Origin: Acidimicrobiaceae bacterium
GTDB lineage: Bacteria; Actinomycetota; Acidimicrobiia; Acidimicrobiales; UBA10347
Length of the DNA stretch: 7,510 bases
NCBI GenBank assembly: GCA_003485885.1
Contig: DNHM01000245.1
Span: 1-7,510, forward strand
Direction of reading: 5' to 3'
Shown here one piece after another: positions 1-6,302 of this stretch (its first letter is position 1; each line of letters starts with the position of its first letter). The position numbers and the translations under genes are program-made. Under the pieces are notes generated by a model. The model worked only from the letters and a program-made list of their open reading frames with translations. It ran no database searches and was not told the origin of the DNA.

Positions 1-2
1 TT

Positions 3-1217
3 GGCGCTGGAATCATCGGCGCTTCAGCCGCACTCCACCTGATCGAGTCTGGCGCTCGTGATGTCATCGTCATCGACGCTGGTGAACCGCTGACCGGCAC
101 GACACCAGCCGGCGCCGGCTTCGTCGCACGTTTCGGCGCTGATCACAACCGTCGGCTTGGTTCGTGCACCATCCCGCTGCAGGAGTACGGCCTGGAGTTC
201 TACCGAGGTCTGCACGAGTCGGGCGCAGATCTCGAATTTGCGAGCAACGGAAATGTGGTGCTCGCCTGCACGCCAACCATGCTCGACACGTTGGCCGACG
301 GCATCATGGGACACCCCCATGTGGGCGCTGGCACGCGCGTGCTCGACGCGGACGGTGTCGCAGAAGTCATGTGTGGAGCGGTCGATCCAGCGGCCGTCGC
401 TGGTGGCATCTATATGCCAGAAGCCATTCAGCTCACCACCGGTCTCGCTCAGCAGGAAATCATTACCCGTCTCGAAGATGCGGGTGTGCAGTTCCAGTGG
501 GACACACCAGCAACGGGTGTGCGCATCGCCGATGGCGCAGTCACCGGCGTGGTGACCACCAAGGGAACGATCGACGCGTCGACCATCGTATTCGCTGCAG
601 GGGCATGGAATCAGACCCTCCTGGAATCCGTGGATCGCCGCCTCCCACTCATCCCGATGGTCGCGACCCGCTGTGTTTCCGAGCACGCAGGCTTGTCGCC
701 GCTCATGCCGACGGTGCAATGCCTGGAGCTTCACCTGTGGCTTCGAGAGCTGCACGGCGCATTCTCGTGGGGCGGCAGCTTTTCGTATCGACTCCTGTCG
801 GCGCTCAAAGAGGACGGACTTGAGTTCGGGTACGAGCGCCCCGTGTCACAGTCGCTGCTCGATGCGCAGTATGCCTCTCAAGAAAATATCGCCGCAGTCT
901 TCCCGGCGCTGTCCGGGCTCTCGACAACCGAGACCATCCAAGGAATCCCCGTCTATACCGTCGATGGCGGGCTCTACGTCGGAGCGGTTCCCGGCATCGA
1001 TGGCCTGTGGGCCCTCGCTGGCGATAGCGAGTCCGGCATAACCCACGGACCCGGTATGGGCAAACTTGTTGCCCAACTCATCATGGGTGAGACCCCCTTT
1101 GCTGACCCGACACCGTTCCGCCTCGACCGCATTGACCCTGCGGCCTACCCGGACGAGGCCTCCATGGTCGCAGCCATGGCAGAAGACCGCATCGCCACCG
1201 CCGCCCAACTCAACTGA
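3..1217 (+). CDS. FAD-dependent oxidoreductase, DAO family (5' end outside window)
   Basis: The reading frame is open from the window edge to TGA at 1215-1217, giving 404 residues. The first visible residues are GAGIIG (1-6), the Rossmann dinucleotide-binding GxGxxG, followed by a beta strand ending in Asp25 (VIVIDAG), which would hold the FAD ribose. Probably only about five to ten residues are missing. TPAGAGF (34-40) matches the conserved Ala/Gly-rich segment after the first strand of DAO proteins, IVFAAGAWN (195-203) is the typical 'AaGaW' strand, and GLYVGAVPG followed by GITHGPGMGKLVAQLIMGE (about 323-363) is the C-terminal FAD-closing segment. The family (sarcosine oxidase beta, glycine oxidase, dimethylglycine dehydrogenase, D-amino-acid dehydrogenase) oxidises amines or amino acids in the cytoplasm or at the membrane. 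The substrate cannot be read from the sequence. The next gene begins 175 nt downstream and is unrelated in function, so an operon is unlikely. Confidence 0.88.
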   Translation, partial: GAGIIGASAALHLIESGARDVIVIDAGEPLTGTTPAGAGFVARFGADHNRRLGSCTIPLQEYGLEFYRGLHESGADLEFASNGNVVLACTPTMLDTLADGIMGHPHVGAGTRVLDADGVAEVMCGAVDPAAVAGGIYMPEAIQLTTGLAQQEIITRLEDAGVQFQWDTPATGVRIADGAVTGVVTTKGTIDASTIVFAAGAWNQTLLESVDRRLPLIPMVATRCVSEHAGLSPLMPTVQCLELHLWLRELHGAFSWGGSFSYRLLSALKEDGLEFGYERPVSQSLLDAQYASQENIAAVFPALSGLSTTETIQGIPVYTVDGGLYVGAVPGIDGLWALAGDSESGITHGPGMGKLVAQLIMGETPFADPTPFRLDRIDPAAYPDEASMVAAMAEDRIATAAQLN

Positions 1218-1392: not shown

Positions 1393-2733
1393 ATGAAATC
1401 GGCACTACCTCCGTTGGTGCAGCGGTCCCTTCAATCGGTTTTAGGAACCGTGCTCGTATTGGTCGCAGTGGCCATGGCGGCATCGAATGCTGGGGCTCAA
1501 GACGCCGCTACCTTTGGTGGTGTCGAGTTCCCGCAGGGTGCCATCTCGTTTGCGGACCGGGTTGTCAGCTACACCAGCGCCGAGGGCGTGATTGCTCCTA
1601 ACGACGATCCAACACGGGCCCTAGGGCCGCCCGATGATGCCGGTGCAATGGTGTCCCTTGGCAACGCCGATTCCCAGTGCCAGACCTCGTTGGTGCTGGA
1701 GTTCGTCGACAACTACTTGGTCGACGTCGAGGGAAACGATCTCTGGATCTTCGAAGTGGGACCCGATGTCGAGGCGACCGAATTGTTCATCAGCACCGAC
1801 GCGGTCAACTGGATCGCGATCGGAAAGGTCGAAGGTTCGACCCGTGGCGCGGACATCGCCGACTTCGTTTCGCCGGGCCAGAAGTTTCCGTTCATCCGCC
1901 TGTGTGACTTCCCTGACGGTGTCACAAGCGGCTCACCTTACGCCGGCCCCGACATCACAGCAGTCGGCGCAATCGGGTCGATAGTCCGCCCGCCCAGCGA
2001 ACAGACCAACCCGCCAACGGTCACCGGTGACGGCCAAACAGGTAGCGGCCAAACAGGTAGCGGCCAGACAAGTGGCGGGGTGATTGGTAGCGGCGCTATC
2101 GGCTCGACCTATCCGCCTCTACCCTTCGGAAGCCCAGAGCCGTGGCCTGTCGACCGGATGACGATCCAAGCAGCGCAACGACAGGTGGTTGCCGGTGGCC
2201 GGGTGTGGGTGCCGGTCTACTTGTTGCGAAGCGACAACGTCGCCAACATCAACTTTGAGATCACCTACGACGCAAGCGTCGCTGTACCCGACGGGGATCT
2301 GGTCGCAGGCAACCTACTCGGAGGACGGCTGTTCAGCGCCAACCCTGGCGATCCCGGGATCGTGAGAGTCGGCTTCTCTGGCACCGACGGGGTGTTCGGC
2401 ACCGGCACGGTGGCCTGGATCCCCTTCAGAGCGGTGGGACAACCCGGTCAACGGACCGTCCTCTCGGTGACCGTGAGCACGATCAATGAACCCAACGGCG
2501 CAGAACCTCCCATCGATCGGATCAACGGCGCAATCATCATCGTCGACGCAAACGGGCTGACACCTGGAGACTGCGACGGAAATGGGTACCTGACCGAATA
2601 TGACGCATTCTGCGCTCTCCAGATGTCCGTGCAACTGCGACCGGTTCAGCTCACGCTCGATATCGACAACGATGGTGCCGTCACCAGCCGCGACGCGACC
2701 ATCATCTTGCAGCGAGTAACCGGACGGGCCTGA
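1393..2733 (+). CDS. Secreted cohesin-dockerin protein with N-terminal jelly-roll-like domain
   Basis: This 446-aa exported protein has five parts. (1) A signal peptide, 1-35, with a hydrophobic core around 17-30 and a likely cut after SNAGA. (2) A domain at about 38-196 with ALGPPDD, NDLWIFEVGP, ELFISTDAVNW, DIADFV and AGPDITAVGAIGS, a pattern I know from bacterial surface proteins with lectin- or F5/8-like folds; Cys96 and Cys171 could form a disulfide. (3) A Gly/Ser/Thr/Gln/Pro linker, 197-255. (4) A cohesin-like domain, about 256-385, with the NINFEITYD strand and GTVAWIPFRAVG. (5) A type I-like dockerin, 391-446, with two 12-residue calcium loops (D393-D395-N397-T401-D404 and D423-D425-D427-T431-D434). 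Cohesin and dockerin modules bind each other in cellulosomes and in non-cellulosomal surface proteins. No catalytic domain is visible. The next gene, also with a cohesin, follows directly and may be co-transcribed. The dockerin call is strong, the cohesin call good, and the N-terminal fold tentative. Confidence 0.85.
   Translation: MKSALPPLVQRSLQSVLGTVLVLVAVAMAASNAGAQDAATFGGVEFPQGAISFADRVVSYTSAEGVIAPNDDPTRALGPPDDAGAMVSLGNADSQCQTSLVLEFVDNYLVDVEGNDLWIFEVGPDVEATELFISTDAVNWIAIGKVEGSTRGADIADFVSPGQKFPFIRLCDFPDGVTSGSPYAGPDITAVGAIGSIVRPPSEQTNPPTVTGDGQTGSGQTGSGQTSGGVIGSGAIGSTYPPLPFGSPEPWPVDRMTIQAAQRQVVAGGRVWVPVYLLRSDNVANINFEITYDASVAVPDGDLVAGNLLGGRLFSANPGDPGIVRVGFSGTDGVFGTGTVAWIPFRAVGQPGQRTVLSVTVSTINEPNGAEPPIDRINGAIIIVDANGLTPGDCDGNGYLTEYDAFCALQMSVQLRPVQLTLDIDNDGAVTSRDATIILQRVTGRA
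2032..2076 (+). repeat. Three 15-bp tandem repeats in the linker of the cohesin-dockerin gene
   Basis: Units at 2032-2046 and 2047-2061 are identical (GGCCAAACAGGTAGC). The third, 2062-2076, differs at three bases. Each unit encodes the pentapeptide GQTGS or GQTSG, giving an extended flexible hinge between the N-terminal domain and the cohesin. The unit is a multiple of three, so gain or loss of copies would keep the frame. Confidence 0.9.
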
Positions 2734-2737
2734 GATC

Positions 2738-3640
2738 ATGAACCTAGACACCGTGAAACCTGCAACCGTGAACCCACCACATCTCATCACATTCAGCACG
2801 ACAACCTGTCGGGCAAAAGGCGGAGGCCACCTGCGACGCTACATCAGCAAAATATTCGTCTCCCTGGTTGCCGTCGTCGCGGTCATGGCTGCGATGTCGA
2901 ACGCTCAGGCGCAGATACCTGTCAACGTACAGGTCGATGCCGTCGAGCTTGAGACAAGTGCCATCGACACGGTGCCGATCGTCATCACCGGCGCCGACGG
3001 CATCGTGGCCATGCACGTCGAAATCACCTATGACCCTGCCGTCCTCCAGTGGGACAGCCTCGAAAACGGCGACTTGTTGTCCTCCAACAGCTTGGTCGAG
3101 GTCAACCCAGATATTGCCGGGACGGTGATCGTCGGTATCGCCACCCTCGACCCGGTCAGCGGAACCGGCCCGCTACTCCTCCCCCGGTTCTCGGTACTGG
3201 GTGCCGAAGGCGCCACCGCAACGGTTGGTCTACAGAACGTTGCAGCTTGGGATGAGAATGGCTTCGATGTCTTGATCCAGACCCAAGACCAGAACCTTGC
3301 CATCGCCGGCGGAAGTGGTCCTCCCATTCTGTTGATCGCCCTGATCGTCGGTGCCGTCGTCATTATTGGTATCGCAGCGCGGCTGATGAAAGGGCGCCGA
3401 ACACCTCCAGCCGTTGCACCGACATCGACCCCGGCAACGGTCGGGCCTGCACCTGGTGCCGCCGGTTCGCAGGTCTTTGTCAACCAACCCGTGACCCTGC
3501 TGGACAGTCAACAGAACCCGGTGGGCCAACTACAGCCGGGTCAGTTCTACACAGTCATGGAAGAAAACGCTGGTTGGTACGCAGTCACCGATGCTGCGGG
3601 GAACAGTGGCTGGGTCTCGGCGACCATGGTCAACCGGTGA
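2738..3640 (+). CDS. Membrane-anchored cohesin-domain protein with C-terminal SH3b-like domain
   Basis: The longest form, from ATG 2738, is 300 aa and starts 4 nt after the previous stop. Its first 31 residues are polar and precede a normal signal peptide (LRRYISKIF, then a hydrophobic core at about 40-53, likely cut at NAQA-Q). CTG 2831 (residue 32), 4 nt after GGAGG, may be the real start. Domains in this numbering: cohesin-like, about 60-190 (VAMHVEITYDPAVLQW, GTVIVGIA, LLPRFSVLG); a transmembrane helix, about 195-214; a basic stop-transfer RLMKGRR, 215-221; a Pro/Thr/Ala linker, 222-243; and an SH3b-like module, about 245-300 (GQLQPGQFYTV, GWYAV, GWVSATMV). Its signal peptide resembles that of the upstream protein, and both cohesins share the ITYD strand and GTG motif, which suggests a common origin. 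It could be a surface receptor for the neighbour's dockerin. The binding partner is inferred; the SH3b call is moderate. Confidence 0.78.
   Translation: MNLDTVKPATVNPPHLITFSTTTCRAKGGGHLRRYISKIFVSLVAVVAVMAAMSNAQAQIPVNVQVDAVELETSAIDTVPIVITGADGIVAMHVEITYDPAVLQWDSLENGDLLSSNSLVEVNPDIAGTVIVGIATLDPVSGTGPLLLPRFSVLGAEGATATVGLQNVAAWDENGFDVLIQTQDQNLAIAGGSGPPILLIALIVGAVVIIGIAARLMKGRRTPPAVAPTSTPATVGPAPGAAGSQVFVNQPVTLLDSQQNPVGQLQPGQFYTVMEENAGWYAVTDAAGNSGWVSATMVNR
2796..2814 (+). promoter_or_regulatory. Small hairpin in the leader between the two cohesin genes
   Basis: CGACA (2799-2803) pairs with TGTCG (2807-2811) across a 3-nt loop, and the stem extends two more pairs after one A-G mismatch. It lies 7 nt upstream of GGAGG at 2822. 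It may be an RNA processing or stability element separating the two cistrons, or have no function. It makes most sense if 2734-2830 is an untranslated leader. Confidence 0.3.
2822..2826 (+). promoter_or_regulatory. Shine-Dalgarno sequence pointing to a CTG start at 2831
   Basis: GGAGG (within GGCGGAGG) is the best Shine-Dalgarno match near this gene, 4 nt before CTG 2831, exactly where the n-region of the signal peptide (LRRYISK) begins. ATG 2738 and the in-frame GTGs at 2753 and 2768 lack a comparable site. The spacing is a little short and CTG starts are rare, so this is suggestive only. Confidence 0.4.
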
Positions 3641-3660
3641 GCCCATAAGCAACCGGTGAG
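3631..3660. repeat. Short direct repeat over the stop of the second cohesin gene
   Basis: CAACCGGTGAG occurs at 3631-3641 and again at 3650-3660, 19 nt apart. The first copy contains the TGA stop (3638-3640). It looks like a small local duplication at the 3' end. The 76 nt between this stop and the stop of the convergent TPR gene contain no clear intrinsic terminator. Confidence 0.6.
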
Positions 3661-3697
3661 TGTTGCGTCGACCATCTGAACCCACCTGACAACAACA
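3658..3697. repeat. Intergenic motif pair, copy 1
   Basis: GAGTGTTGCGTCG (3658-3670) is followed by ACCCACCTGACAACAACA (3680-3697), between the convergent cohesin and TPR genes. Near-identical versions of both motifs, in the opposite order, occur upstream of cysS at 6374-6420. They could be part of a dispersed intergenic repeat family or a coincidence. Confidence 0.3.
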
Positions 3698-3716
3698 GCT
3701 TGCTGGCGGTTAGCTC

Positions 3717-5399
3717 TCAGGATTCGCAGCAAGATTCTTCGAGACGGCAGAAGCACGATGACGTGACGTCGATGTCGGCGCTCTTGGCCGCCTCTGCCAG
3801 CTGGGTGGCAATATCGGCGGCTTCATCCAGGCGACCAAGCAACTCGCAACACTCGCGATAGCCGTGCAACGCCCACAGATTGCCGGGATGTTGTGATGGT
3901 CTGACCAGCGTGTCATCGAGGCCCAAGTCAGCTCGATACACGGTCGCGGCCTCTTCGACATGGCCCTGCTCGAGCAGCAATGCACCCAGAGCATGGCGTG
4001 GTGGCTGCATCCACACCCATGGTTCGCTGTAATTGAGCTGGTCATAGAGCTCGACACATCGACGCAGCTCTGCGAAGGCCAGATCAAATTTGCCCCGGCG
4101 ATACTCGAGCTCGCCGGACAACATGGCTTCGCCCACCTTGAGCATGTCGCGGCTTTCGTTGTTGAACACCTTGCGATCTTCGGGAACGCGATCAAACGCC
4201 TGCGCGAACAAGTCCTGCTGATCTGCAGCCCTCTGGACATCGCCCGAGGCGGCATACGCGACACCCTTGGCGTAGTGCCACAACGCGGTGGTGACACAGA
4301 ACAGTTCAGGGTCGAGCGGCATGGGTTCGTCAATGATCTCTTGCCACTTGCCAAAGCGGATGTAGACGTGCACCTTCATGCCGTAGAACGCTTCGAGATA
4401 GTTGACGAGGAACTCGTTCTCGTGCTGCAAGACCTCGGGCGTCACGGTCTCCCAGATCTGGTTGCCAGCCTTCAACGCTGGTTCGCACTGACCCAGAAAC
4501 ATGGCCGAGTACATCTGGAAATGGATGTTGTGCAGCATGTAGATCGAGTAGATCCCGACCTCGGGATTGGCTGCCATGTACTTCTCGTCGGCCACGACCG
4601 CTTCGACATTCGCATCGAGCGAGTCTTGGAACTGGCCACACAACACATAGAGGTGCGACGGCATGTGAATCAAGTGCGCAGCATCGGGCACCAGCGACCG
4701 CAAAACGTCGGCCTCAGGCAACCCAGCTTCGGGCGTGGGCGACATCTCCATGATGTGGATCTTGAAGTGCAGCAGACCAGGGTGAGGCGGGCGTTCTTCG
4801 GTAGCCGCACGCTCGAGCGCCATATCGAGTAGTTCGAGCGCCTGAACCGTAGAGGCTCCTTCGGCCGGGCAACGCTTCTCGAGATCCCACAGCTGCCACG
4901 GGGTCCGACACATGAGCGCATCGATGGCCAAGGCCACGACATCGTCGTCGGCCAGGAAACGTTCGGCGACAGCGACCATCGCGTCGGCGTAGTCGTCGTC
5001 CCACTGGGCGTAGATCTCCAGGCTGTCGTTCGCCGGTTCCGGGCAACGGATTGCGTAGGCCGCAATGAGCGCCTGCTCGGCAGCCGATGCGGACGACGCG
5101 TGTTCTTGCGCCTGGGCCATGAACCCGTGCACCTGCTGGTTCACATGTGCACGAAGCGGTGCAGGCATGCGGTCCCATGGGCCGTTGTAGTACGGCCCCA
5201 ACGAATAGGCAAGACCCCAGTACCCAATCGCGCAGGTTGGGTCGAGTTCCACGACCTTCTCGAAACAGCGATGGGCCTCTTCGCGCGAAAACGCGTAGGA
5301 CCAGTTCAGCCCGCGGTCAAACCACACCTGTGCCTCGGCCGAGGATGTGGTGACGATCCGGGTATGGGATCCAAGGTCAAAATCGTAGTCATCGCTCAC
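3717..5399 (-). CDS. TPR-repeat protein of 560 aa with Cys-rich C-terminus
   Basis: This is a soluble protein with no signal peptide or membrane helix, made of helical pairs in the tetratricopeptide style. The N-terminal repeat (about 21-70: WFDRGLNWSYAFSREEAHRC, LDPTCAIGYWGLAYSLGPYYN) is characteristic of a bacterial TPR family. The middle has HIMEMSPTPEAGL (215-227) and a HLIHMPSHLYVLCGQFQDSL segment (242-261). The C-terminal part (EPWVWMQPPRHALGALLLEQ, then EEAATVYRADL and NLWALHGY) matches the usual end of that family. TPR arrays are protein-binding scaffolds; no enzyme domain or partner can be read here. The protein ends in C549-F-C551 and C557-C558, a possible metal or disulfide site. 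The start is GTG 5399: there is no Shine-Dalgarno sequence, but a TAGGTT box fits a leaderless transcript. It is convergent with the cohesin genes and divergent from the LtrA remnant, so probably transcribed alone. Confidence 0.85.
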   Translation of the reverse strand: MSDDYDFDLGSHTRIVTTSSAEAQVWFDRGLNWSYAFSREEAHRCFEKVVELDPTCAIGYWGLAYSLGPYYNGPWDRMPAPLRAHVNQQVHGFMAQAQEHASSASAAEQALIAAYAIRCPEPANDSLEIYAQWDDDYADAMVAVAERFLADDDVVALAIDALMCRTPWQLWDLEKRCPAEGASTVQALELLDMALERAATEERPPHPGLLHFKIHIMEMSPTPEAGLPEADVLRSLVPDAAHLIHMPSHLYVLCGQFQDSLDANVEAVVADEKYMAANPEVGIYSIYMLHNIHFQMYSAMFLGQCEPALKAGNQIWETVTPEVLQHENEFLVNYLEAFYGMKVHVYIRFGKWQEIIDEPMPLDPELFCVTTALWHYAKGVAYAASGDVQRAADQQDLFAQAFDRVPEDRKVFNNESRDMLKVGEAMLSGELEYRRGKFDLAFAELRRCVELYDQLNYSEPWVWMQPPRHALGALLLEQGHVEEAATVYRADLGLDDTLVRPSQHPGNLWALHGYRECCELLGRLDEAADIATQLAEAAKSADIDVTSSCFCRLEESCCES

Positions 5400-5509: not shown

Positions 5510-6302
5510 GTGGAGCTCTTCTTTGACCTGGCATTCGTTTATGCGTTCTCCCAACTCGTTGCCCACTTGGTCCACTTCCCTACCTGGGGCGGCGCTGGGG
5601 ACGCAGCGCTGGTGTTGCTGGTGCTGTGGTTTGCGTGGTCGATGTTCACATGGGCAGCGAACGCCGTGAGCGGTGACGCACGCGAGGTGCGGTTTGCCTT
5701 CTTGATCAGCACCGCCGTATCCGTCCCTATGGGCGCATCGGTGCAGAGCGCCTTTTCGTCAGGCGGCGGCACCTTTGCGATCTGCGCATCAGTGATCGTT
5801 GGGTTAGCTATTGCCCTCCAACTTTGGGCAACTGCAAGCCTGGGAGACGGCCGGAAGGAACGGCTGACCGTCATTCGATACGGCTTGCCCAACCTGCTCG
5901 CCTGCTCGTTGCTGATCGCCGGCGGTTTTCACCATGACCCATATTCCATTGGTGGCAGGGATCATCACCACCGCAGCCGCTACCGAAGAGATCCTGCTCC
6001 ACCCCAAAGACGAGGCGCACACGGAGTTCCTCCTCATGTTCGTGGCCGGCATCACGTTGTTCTTTGGCGGCGTGGCCCTCGCTGTCTTTATCTCATTTCG
6101 AGCGGTCGCGATCGAACGGCTTGCCACCATTGCTGCGATCGCCGTTCTCACCCTTGTTGGCAGCTCCCTCGACGGGGTCACGCTGCTTTTCATCGTCGAT
6201 GGGTTGATCCTGGTGGGCTTGATCGCCGAACATCGACGTATCGAAAACATGCAGCCGGTTACTTCAGAACCCACACCTACCCACGCACGTTCGAAGAAGT
6301 AG
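5510..6302 (+). pseudogene. LtrA-family (low temperature requirement A) membrane protein remnant, internal deletion with frame change
   Basis: The 5' part, in the frame of GTG 5510, begins with VELFFDLAFVYAFSQL, the hallmark N-terminal motif of LtrA proteins, and continues through about five hydrophobic helices to RYGLPNLLACSLLIAGGF (ending near 5929). From there homology continues one base later in the frame of 5934 with THIPLVAGII, LHPKDEA and four more helices, which match the LtrA C-terminus, to TAG at 6300-6302. LtrA proteins are usually around 350-400 aa; here the two parts total about 260. The conserved central part, with its His/Glu-Arg and Gly-Glu helices, is absent at the junction. 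No ATG or Shine-Dalgarno sequence precedes the first motif: the frame is open back to a TAG at 5447 and only CTG 5468 or GTG 5510 are available. The original frame runs on to 6346 as non-membrane, Arg/His-rich sequence. LtrA function is poorly known. An assembly or sequencing error could explain the frame change but less easily the missing core. Confidence 0.7.
5934..6302 (+). CDS. C-terminal LtrA fragment, ORF with its own ATG
   Basis: This is the 3' half of the LtrA remnant described above, given separately because gene callers may report it. It encodes 122 aa with four predicted membrane helices (about 4-21, 32-57, 62-80 and 84-98) and a polar tail ending THARSKK. The start MTHIPLVAGII corresponds to an internal position in full-length LtrA proteins, and there is no Shine-Dalgarno sequence before ATG 5934. 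It is therefore more likely the downstream part of a broken gene than an independent protein. Confidence 0.4.
   Translation: MTHIPLVAGIITTAAATEEILLHPKDEAHTEFLLMFVAGITLFFGGVALAVFISFRAVAIERLATIAAIAVLTLVGSSLDGVTLLFIVDGLILVGLIAEHRRIENMQPVTSEPTPTHARSKK

What the first reader, a model, noticed from the sequence alone, without database searches (positions are those of the whole stretch)
1393..3640. Two-gene cohesin/dockerin surface module without any enzyme
Seen: a secreted protein with a cohesin-like domain and a dockerin with two canonical calcium loops, followed by a gene for a membrane-anchored cohesin-like protein with SH3b. Known: cohesin-dockerin pairs build cellulosomes in clostridia, and isolated modules of unclear role occur widely in other bacteria. 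Inference: this pair forms a minimal calcium-dependent surface assembly in a probably non-cellulolytic actinomycete-type bacterium, with the dockerin of the first protein docking on the cohesin of the second.
Basis: partly seen in the sequence, partly recalled or inferred. Interest (0 to 1): 0.8.

Follow-up and report, generated by a model that had tools for sequence, protein, structure and literature searches.

The report
Enzyme-free cohesin–dockerin surface display cassette
Two neighbouring genes in an uncultured bacterium encode a protein with a predicted secretion signal, a protein "socket" (cohesin) and a "plug" (dockerin), and a second socket protein with a predicted membrane anchor; the plug likely locks into the anchored socket, as in cellulosomes but with no enzyme domain recognised in the pair, which would display the first protein on the cell surface.

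Summary
Gene 1 (1393-2733) has a signal peptide, an unnamed beta-rich domain, a cohesin and a C-terminal dockerin with two calcium loops. Gene 2 (ORF 2738-3640) has a signal peptide, a cohesin, a transmembrane helix and an SH3-like tail. Both cohesins pass Pfam's cut-off; the best solved match is the Archaeoglobus fulgidus cohesin. The 80%-complete genome shows only these two cohesins and one clear dockerin.

The pair is a conserved cassette: in 8 of 8 clusters examined, an X-cohesin-dockerin gene is followed at once by a gene 2-type cohesin gene. Among 69 homologues the dockerin is C-terminal, the N-terminal part varies and Pfam names no enzyme domain. A relative's dockerin and anchor cohesin, fused, fold with pTM 0.79, suggesting docking (no control). 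In A. fulgidus a pair with this layout is reported to bind strongly (PMC9705933, passages).

Correction: the SH3-like tail should be cytoplasmic. This is a new variant of the known non-cellulosomal cohesin-dockerin pair.

The parts
1393..2733 (+). Gene 1: X-cohesin-dockerin protein (446 aa) with predicted signal peptide, adaptor-like
1393..1497 (+). Predicted signal peptide of gene 1 (residues 1-35, cleavage likely AGA|Q)
   Evidence: sequence; helix 7-30; inferred
1498..1995 (+). N-terminal beta-rich domain (residues 36-201), no Pfam name; the part that varies among homologues
1996..2142 (+). Low-complexity Gly/Ser/Thr/Gln/Pro linker, residues 202-250
   Evidence: sequence; low pLDDT 209-227
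2152..2556 (+). Cohesin 1 (residues 254-388)
2563..2730 (+). C-terminal dockerin (residues 391-446) with Cys394 and Cys407
2569..2604 (+). Calcium loop 1 (residues 393-404)
   Evidence: sequence; D393 and D404 invariant in 69 of 69
2659..2694 (+). Calcium loop 2 (residues 423-434)
   Evidence: sequence; D423 and D434 invariant in 69 of 69
2738..3640 (+). Gene 2 ORF: cohesin protein with predicted signal peptide, transmembrane helix and SH3-like tail; likely start CTG at 2831
2822..2826 (+). GGAGG, Shine-Dalgarno-like, 4 nt before CTG 2831
   Evidence: sequence; start inferred from relatives
2831..2911 (+). Predicted signal peptide of gene 2
   Evidence: sequence; (hydrophobic 36-54, K/R before it); inferred
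2912..3307 (+). Cohesin 2 (residues 59-190 of the ORF), the anchor socket
   Evidence: fold of a relative's copy
3323..3379 (+). Predicted transmembrane helix (residues 196-214), K/R-rich after it
3509..3625 (+). SH3-like tail (residues 258-296), expected in the cytoplasm
   Evidence: 25.5 bits, cut-off 27; topology inferred

Best explanation
The window holds a two-gene cassette: one gene encodes an X-cohesin-dockerin protein with a predicted signal peptide, the next a cohesin protein with a predicted membrane anchor, and the dockerin of the first likely docks with calcium on the cohesin of the second, so that the N-terminal domain would be held on the cell surface. Gene 1 works like a monovalent adaptor. 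Its own cohesin stays free to receive another dockerin: a second copy of gene 1, or in relatives the dockerin-only proteins encoded upstream. Short chains could therefore form on the anchor. Shown: domains, order, conservation of adjacency, and no enzyme domain named by Pfam in the homologues scanned. Predicted: secretion, membrane topology with the SH3-like tail inside the cell, and docking. Untested: binding, calcium dependence, chain growth, and what the displayed domain binds.
For: Both cohesins pass the Pfam cut-off, and both families match the A. fulgidus cohesin 2xdh best by sequence profile; one search shows the fold for a relative's anchor cohesin. Adjacency holds in 8 of 8 clusters from 7 genomes. 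Cohesin 1 and cohesin 2 form two groups with support 100/98, and their distances correlate, r 0.73; 169 of 40320 relabelings reach it. Of the 8 gene-2 proteins, 7 have a signal-like stretch plus a later hydrophobic helix followed by K/R; the eighth has a lipobox instead. In 4 of the 7 genomes counted with Pfam, the cassette's two cohesins are the only ones found, own genome included; in one of those four, G009, blastp shows a further one on contig C171. A relative's dockerin and anchor cohesin in one chain give pTM 0.79; the cohesin alone is about 135 of 225 residues, so about 0.6 would be expected without docking, my estimate. A. fulgidus Doc of ORF2375 with Coh of ORF2376 is described as the most specific and strongest of 154 pairs compared (PMC9705933, passages).
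Against: No binding data exist for this organism. The window dockerin scores below Pfam's cut-off (15.8 vs 22.9). The complex test used a relative, gave no coordinates or PAE, and had no control. The pair is rare: 2 of 99 relatives, own genome included, and 3 of 400 Chloroflexota genomes. It was not found in 5 same-genus genomes; in one, G002, the place next to the TPR gene holds a tRNA-Arg gene instead of gene 2, so the function is dispensable in the genus. Three of the seven genomes have further cohesins elsewhere, two of them with a two-cohesin frame (G357, G360), so the partner there is not unique. One gene-2 relative (L015) has a third hydrophobic stretch after the helix, which could turn its tail outward.
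Confidence: 0.7

Rival explanations
1. The dockerin mainly binds cohesin 1 on another gene 1 molecule, so gene 1 polymerises head to tail into a fibre; gene 2 is only the base or a minor partner.
For: Cohesin and dockerin sit in one protein in all 69 homologues aligned, with the same 13-residue spacing in 50 of 69. That argues for a rigid unit and against folding back on itself (inference). In A. fulgidus both cohesins bind the one dockerin (abstract of Voronov-Goldman 2011, recalled, not read here).
Against: The anchor gene is present in 8 of 8 clusters, which a pure homopolymer would not need. Dockerin-only genes upstream in 3 of the 8 clusters suggest defined rather than open-ended stacks. 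The dockerin was not tested against cohesin 1.
Confidence: 0.25
2. The modules are relics: the cohesins act as plain beta-sandwich spacers and the N-terminal domain does the work alone.
For: An early paper on the archaeal modules called them an enigmatic vestige (title seen in a reference list). The window dockerin is below the Pfam cut-off. One copy in L020 is interrupted by a stop.
Against: Calcium-ligand aspartates D393, D404, D423 and D434 are invariant in 69 of 69, and C407 too. Adjacency and two separate cohesin lineages are kept across phyla. The N-terminal part changes while the cohesin-dockerin unit does not.
Confidence: 0.1
3. It is a stripped or partial cellulosome, with dockerin-bearing enzymes missed in the part of the genome not assembled.
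For: The genome is 80% complete. Cohesins and dockerins define cellulosomes. Many N-terminal parts of the homologues have no Pfam name. Two relatives' genomes have a frame with two cohesins outside the cassette (G357:C449, G360:C17).
Against: 0 of 69 homologues carry a catalytic Pfam domain at E <= 0.001. In the own genome no frame has more than one cohesin. In five relatives' genomes this dockerin type lies in the cassette contigs except for one further copy in G360, counting G009 C171 with C124.
Confidence: 0.04

Closest known systems
Archaeoglobus fulgidus ORF2375/ORF2376 non-cellulosomal cohesin-dockerin pair
   Same: Consecutively numbered genes: one with a dockerin at residues 432-506, one with a cohesin at 29-162; strong specific binding reported (PMC9705933, passages). 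The A. fulgidus cohesin 2xdh is the best sequence match of both cohesin families here.
   Different: Here it is bacterial, with two cysteines in the dockerin, a transmembrane or lipid anchor with changing tails, changing N-terminal domains, and sometimes dockerin-only genes upstream. That ORF2375 also has a cohesin is recalled, not checked; the archaeal sequences were not compared for these features.
Monovalent adaptor scaffoldin plus nonSLH-anchoring scaffoldin of cellulosomes (terms of PMC11557425, passages)
   Same: One dockerin with one cohesin in gene 1; a cohesin with a C-terminal TM helix in gene 2.
   Different: In the own genome no multi-cohesin scaffoldin and no dockerin-bearing enzyme was found.
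Cohesin/dockerin proteins of ANME archaea (PMC9012536, passages)
   Same: Use of the modules outside cellulosomes; meaning described as not clear.
   Different: ANME have proteins with up to five cohesins and several kinds of dockerin protein; here two cohesins and one dockerin.

Membership tests
Cohesin (PF00963) | Profile score over Pfam's curated cut-off | tested here: met
   25.9 and 29.1 bits vs 24.1; 28.9 and 30.3 in the genome search
Cohesin (PF00963) | Cohesin fold | tested here: met
Dockerin type I (PF00404) | Two duplicated 12-residue calcium loops, each followed by a helix | tested here: met
   Loops 393-404 and 423-434, helices 402-412 and 432-443 in the model; ligand Asp at 393, 404, 423, 434 invariant in 69 of 69
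Dockerin type I (PF00404) | Score over Pfam's curated cut-off (a detection limit rather than a biological feature) | tested here: inconclusive
   Window 15.8 vs 22.9, so not reached by the window protein; relatives 31.4 (L015 2-361) and 22.9 (L021 280-2136); L017, L019, L020 below; 15 of 69 homologues match at E <= 0.001
A. fulgidus-type two-gene cohesin-dockerin pair | Neighbouring genes: C-terminal dockerin in one, N-terminal cohesin in the other | tested here: met
   Window and 7 further clusters; A. fulgidus layout from PMC9705933 passages
A. fulgidus-type two-gene cohesin-dockerin pair | Measured strong binding between the two proteins | not testable with these tools
   Indirect only: pTM 0.79 for a joined chain of a relative
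Cellulosome | Scaffoldin with several cohesins | tested here: not met
   Only two cohesins found in the own genome, one in each gene; genome 80% complete. Two relatives' genomes have a two-cohesin frame outside the cassette.
Cellulosome | Dockerin-bearing enzymes | tested here: not met
   One dockerin found in the own genome; 0 of 69 homologues with a catalytic Pfam domain
Cellulosome | Cellulose-binding module and cellulases | not tested
   No search for these families was run in the genome

The most novel reading that the evidence does not exclude
The cassette is a calcium-locked modular surface filament with a receptor at its base. Cohesin-dockerin units stack head to tail on a transmembrane cohesin, upstream dockerin-only proteins cap the stack, and the cytoplasmic tail of the anchor (SH3-like here; FHA, zinc ribbon or none in relatives) reports occupancy to the cell. 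It has spread between Acidimicrobiia and Chloroflexota, here beside a tRNA-associated site, with interchangeable outer and inner domains.
Probability: 0.25. Interest if true: 0.8.

Novelty: new variant of a known kind. Interest (0 to 1): 0.52.

Why it matters
Papers seen here say that the function of cohesins and dockerins outside cellulosomes is not known (PMC5244752, passages) or that their implications are not clear (PMC9012536, passages). This cassette is small and, in several genomes, closed, so binding, calcium dependence and surface display can be tested with two proteins. The changing inner tails, FHA among them, raise the question whether such anchors also signal. In the library searched I saw no description of the bacterial cassette in the listings or in the passages read; the main review of non-cellulosomal modules (Peer 2009) is not held, so it may be described there.

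Tried and rejected
Cellulosome reading: dropped, since no multi-cohesin protein or dockerin enzyme was found in the own genome and none of 69 homologues has a named enzyme domain. Contaminant contig: made unlikely, because the cysS gene on the window is 93% and 83% identical to that of two same-genus genomes. Promoter and terminator scan: no promoter-like and one terminator-like site, neither above the shuffles. Rfam gave no match. The class-wide search with the gene 2 profile listed 57 of 296 genomes, but in the rows listed all except the own genome match only from profile position 105 onward, mostly the hydrophobic helix and tail, so they do not count as cohesins; only up to 8 candidates per genome were scored. 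The fold of the N-terminal domain was not resolved: the 50 rows shown in each search follow the cohesin, so no statement is made on it. Of the 11 loci, seven were analysed; L024-L027 (Clostridia, Geomonas), which matched only over query residues 381-444, were set aside. Not counted in the 8 clusters: the cohesin-dockerin gene on G009 contig C171 (L016/L023), followed by a gene cut by the contig end, and a copy in L020 (3819-4640) with an in-frame stop, followed by a dockerin-only gene. P0001 (99% identical to gene 1) was replaced by the window's own protein in the set of 69.

Full report
1. What is there. The window is the whole of contig C427 of a 3.44 Mb assembly, 80% complete. Gene 1 (1393-2733) encodes 446 residues: predicted signal peptide, a beta-rich N-terminal domain with no Pfam name, a Gly/Ser/Thr/Gln/Pro linker, a cohesin (Pfam 25.9 bits, cut-off 24.1) and, at the very end, a dockerin-like module with two 12-residue calcium loops. 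That module scores 15.8 against Pfam's cut-off of 22.9, but is recovered at 112 bits by a profile of its relatives, which includes the window's row. Gene 2 (ORF 2738-3640) encodes a predicted signal peptide, a cohesin (29.1 bits), one more hydrophobic helix followed by K/R, and an SH3-like tail (25.5 bits, cut-off 27). The genome yields two cohesins and one dockerin, all here. A second dockerin-profile hit on another contig (11.9 bits, E 0.69) was not followed.

2. Start of gene 2. Three relatives listed (P0123, P0126, P0127) begin at the residue where the window has CTG (2831-2833); others are listed with longer N-termini. GGAGG stands 4 bases before that CTG. The protein then has 269 residues and a normal-length signal peptide. 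This is an inference.

4. The cassette. The genome-contig scan gave 11 loci; seven were analysed, two of them being the G009 contigs also taken as L015 and L016, and one more cluster came from G473. Eight clusters have a readable X-cohesin-dockerin gene with sequence after it: the window; G009, an Acidimicrobiia MAG in the same order; L017, L018, L019; L020 and L021 (one isolate); and G473. In 8 of 8 the next gene is a cohesin protein of the gene 2 kind. Seven of these eight have a signal-like stretch and a later hydrophobic helix followed by 4-5 K/R in 15 residues; the G473 one has a lipobox and no such helix. The L015 protein has one more hydrophobic stretch after the helix. Three clusters also have upstream genes with a dockerin and no cohesin (L015 2-364, cut by the contig end; L020 4909-6519; L021 280-2139). 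The 16 cohesins split into a gene 1 group and a gene 2 group, each on one side of a branch with support 100/98, and their distance matrices correlate (r 0.73; 169 of 40320 relabelings reach it). Most inner branches of that tree are weak (2 of 13 starred), and I judge that the correlation leans on the close pair L017/L018 and the outlier G473.

5. What varies. Of 120 homologues of gene 1 listed by the protein search (161 found), 10 match both halves, 51 only the N-terminal domain and 59 only the cohesin-dockerin half. In 69 proteins with that half (the window, P0002-P0010 and the 59), the residue aligned to Q440 near the end of the dockerin lies 4-11 residues from the C-terminus. D393, D404, C407, D423 and D434 are invariant and C394 is kept in 67. 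The spacing from cohesin to dockerin is the same 13 residues in 50, while the part before the cohesin runs from 56 to 524 residues. Pfam finds no catalytic domain among the 69 at E <= 0.001. Besides cohesin (60) and dockerin (15) it finds LCCL (4, with four Rxt3 matches), WSC (1), TSP3 (1) and LGFP (1); most N-terminal parts are unnamed, so an unknown enzyme is not excluded. The gene 2 tail varies too: SH3-like (window), a weak likeness to it in L015 (blastp E 0.001; no Pfam match), FHA (L017, 72.4 bits; P0131, 75.9 bits), zinc ribbon (L020, below cut-offs), a tail without Pfam name (L021; P0128), or none (L018, L019). FHA domains normally work in the cytoplasm (established knowledge), which agrees with the K/R cluster after the helix. 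The tail should therefore be inside the cell.

6. Nearly closed set. With the dockerin profile, the genomes of L017, L018 and L019 show one match each, G009 three and L020's genome six. All but one of these (G360:C17) lie on the cassette contigs, counting G009 C171 with C124. That those two contigs adjoin is a guess. Cohesin counts by Pfam are 2 in the own genome, G009, G358 and G473, but 6, 4 and 6 in G357, G359 and G360, some in frames with two cohesins. So the set is not closed everywhere.

7. Distribution. Relatives: 2 of 99, the window and G009. Class sample: of 296 genomes only the own one matches over the cohesin (few candidates were scored per genome). Chloroflexota: 3 of 400, two of them already known, one being the centre of the draw. 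Gene 1's cohesin-dockerin half is more like Chloroflexota copies (61% to L017; 69% to P0011, labelled Thermomicrobiales) than like that of G009 in the same order (46%). The contig itself belongs to the genus: its cysS is 93% and 83% identical to two same-genus copies. In G002, one of these, the TPR gene (83%) stands near cysS as here, but past its end, where the window has gene 2 after 76 bases, lies a tRNA-Arg gene and no trace of gene 2. The window has no tRNA. Gain by transfer next to a tRNA gene is likely, but loss is not excluded and no rooted tree was made.

8. Docking. In L019 the two genes lie in one frame. Reading the intergenic stops as Gly gives dockerin - linker - signal peptide - anchor cohesin in one chain of 225 residues. 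It folds with pLDDT 87.7 and pTM 0.79, with residues 61-90 at about 47-60. The cohesin is about 135 residues; with no fixed dockerin position a pTM near 0.6 would be expected (my estimate). This suggests docking, but without coordinates, PAE or a decoy it is weak evidence. Stronger is the precedent: in A. fulgidus, Doc of ORF2375 (432-506) and Coh of ORF2376 (29-162) are described as the most specific and strongest pair among 154 (PMC9705933, passages). That both archaeal cohesins bind the one dockerin is recalled from the abstract of Voronov-Goldman 2011, not read here.

9. Mechanism and verdict. The two proteins most likely form an anchored display: the gene 2 cohesin outside the membrane receives the gene 1 dockerin, and gene 1's own cohesin can receive a further dockerin. 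A constant cohesin-dockerin unit behind changing N-terminal parts is what a carrier would look like. The parts are known (adaptor and TM-anchoring scaffoldins, PMC11557425, passages; the archaeal pair). What is new, as far as the searches reach, is the cassette without recognised enzymes in Acidimicrobiia and Chloroflexota, with its exchangeable outer and inner domains.

Noticed in passing
window 5510-6299: The LtrA-like gene is in two pieces: the first matches LtrA profile positions 5-143, the second 257-352, with the middle missing and a frame change. In the same-genus genome G002 about 370 bases lie between the TPR gene and cysS, with no LtrA-like frame of 100 aa.
   Followed up: partly
L089 37-113 (G002 contig C1) against window 3640-3717: Where the window has gene 2 beside the TPR gene, the same-genus genome G002 has a tRNA-Arg (CCT) gene; a possible integration site.
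   Followed up: partly
window 1-473: The first 473 bases overlap the end of contig C203 of the same assembly at 97.9% identity, so the upstream neighbour is known and strain variants may be mixed.
   Followed up: partly
window 2569-2730 and homologues: Two near-invariant cysteines in the dockerin (67 and 69 of 69), absent in the G473 copy, suggest a disulfide that marks this subfamily.
   Followed up: partly
L020 3819-4640: A cohesin-dockerin gene in this cluster is interrupted by an in-frame stop inside the dockerin, and the dockerin-only gene after it also looks frame-shifted at its start.
   Followed up: no
P0130: A gene 2 relative carries, after a second hydrophobic stretch, a PF06439 domain, so some anchors may have an outer tail.
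   Followed up: no
G360:C17:4757-5692 and G357:C449:30970-32178: Open frames of 1114 and 693 residues with two cohesins each, the first also with a more distant dockerin, lie outside the cassettes.
   Followed up: no
window 1498-1995: The N-terminal domain of gene 1 also occurs in 51 listed proteins without cohesin-dockerin, some with OmpA or VWA domains, including named proteins of Gymnodinialimonas, Jannaschia and Cereibacter.
   Followed up: no
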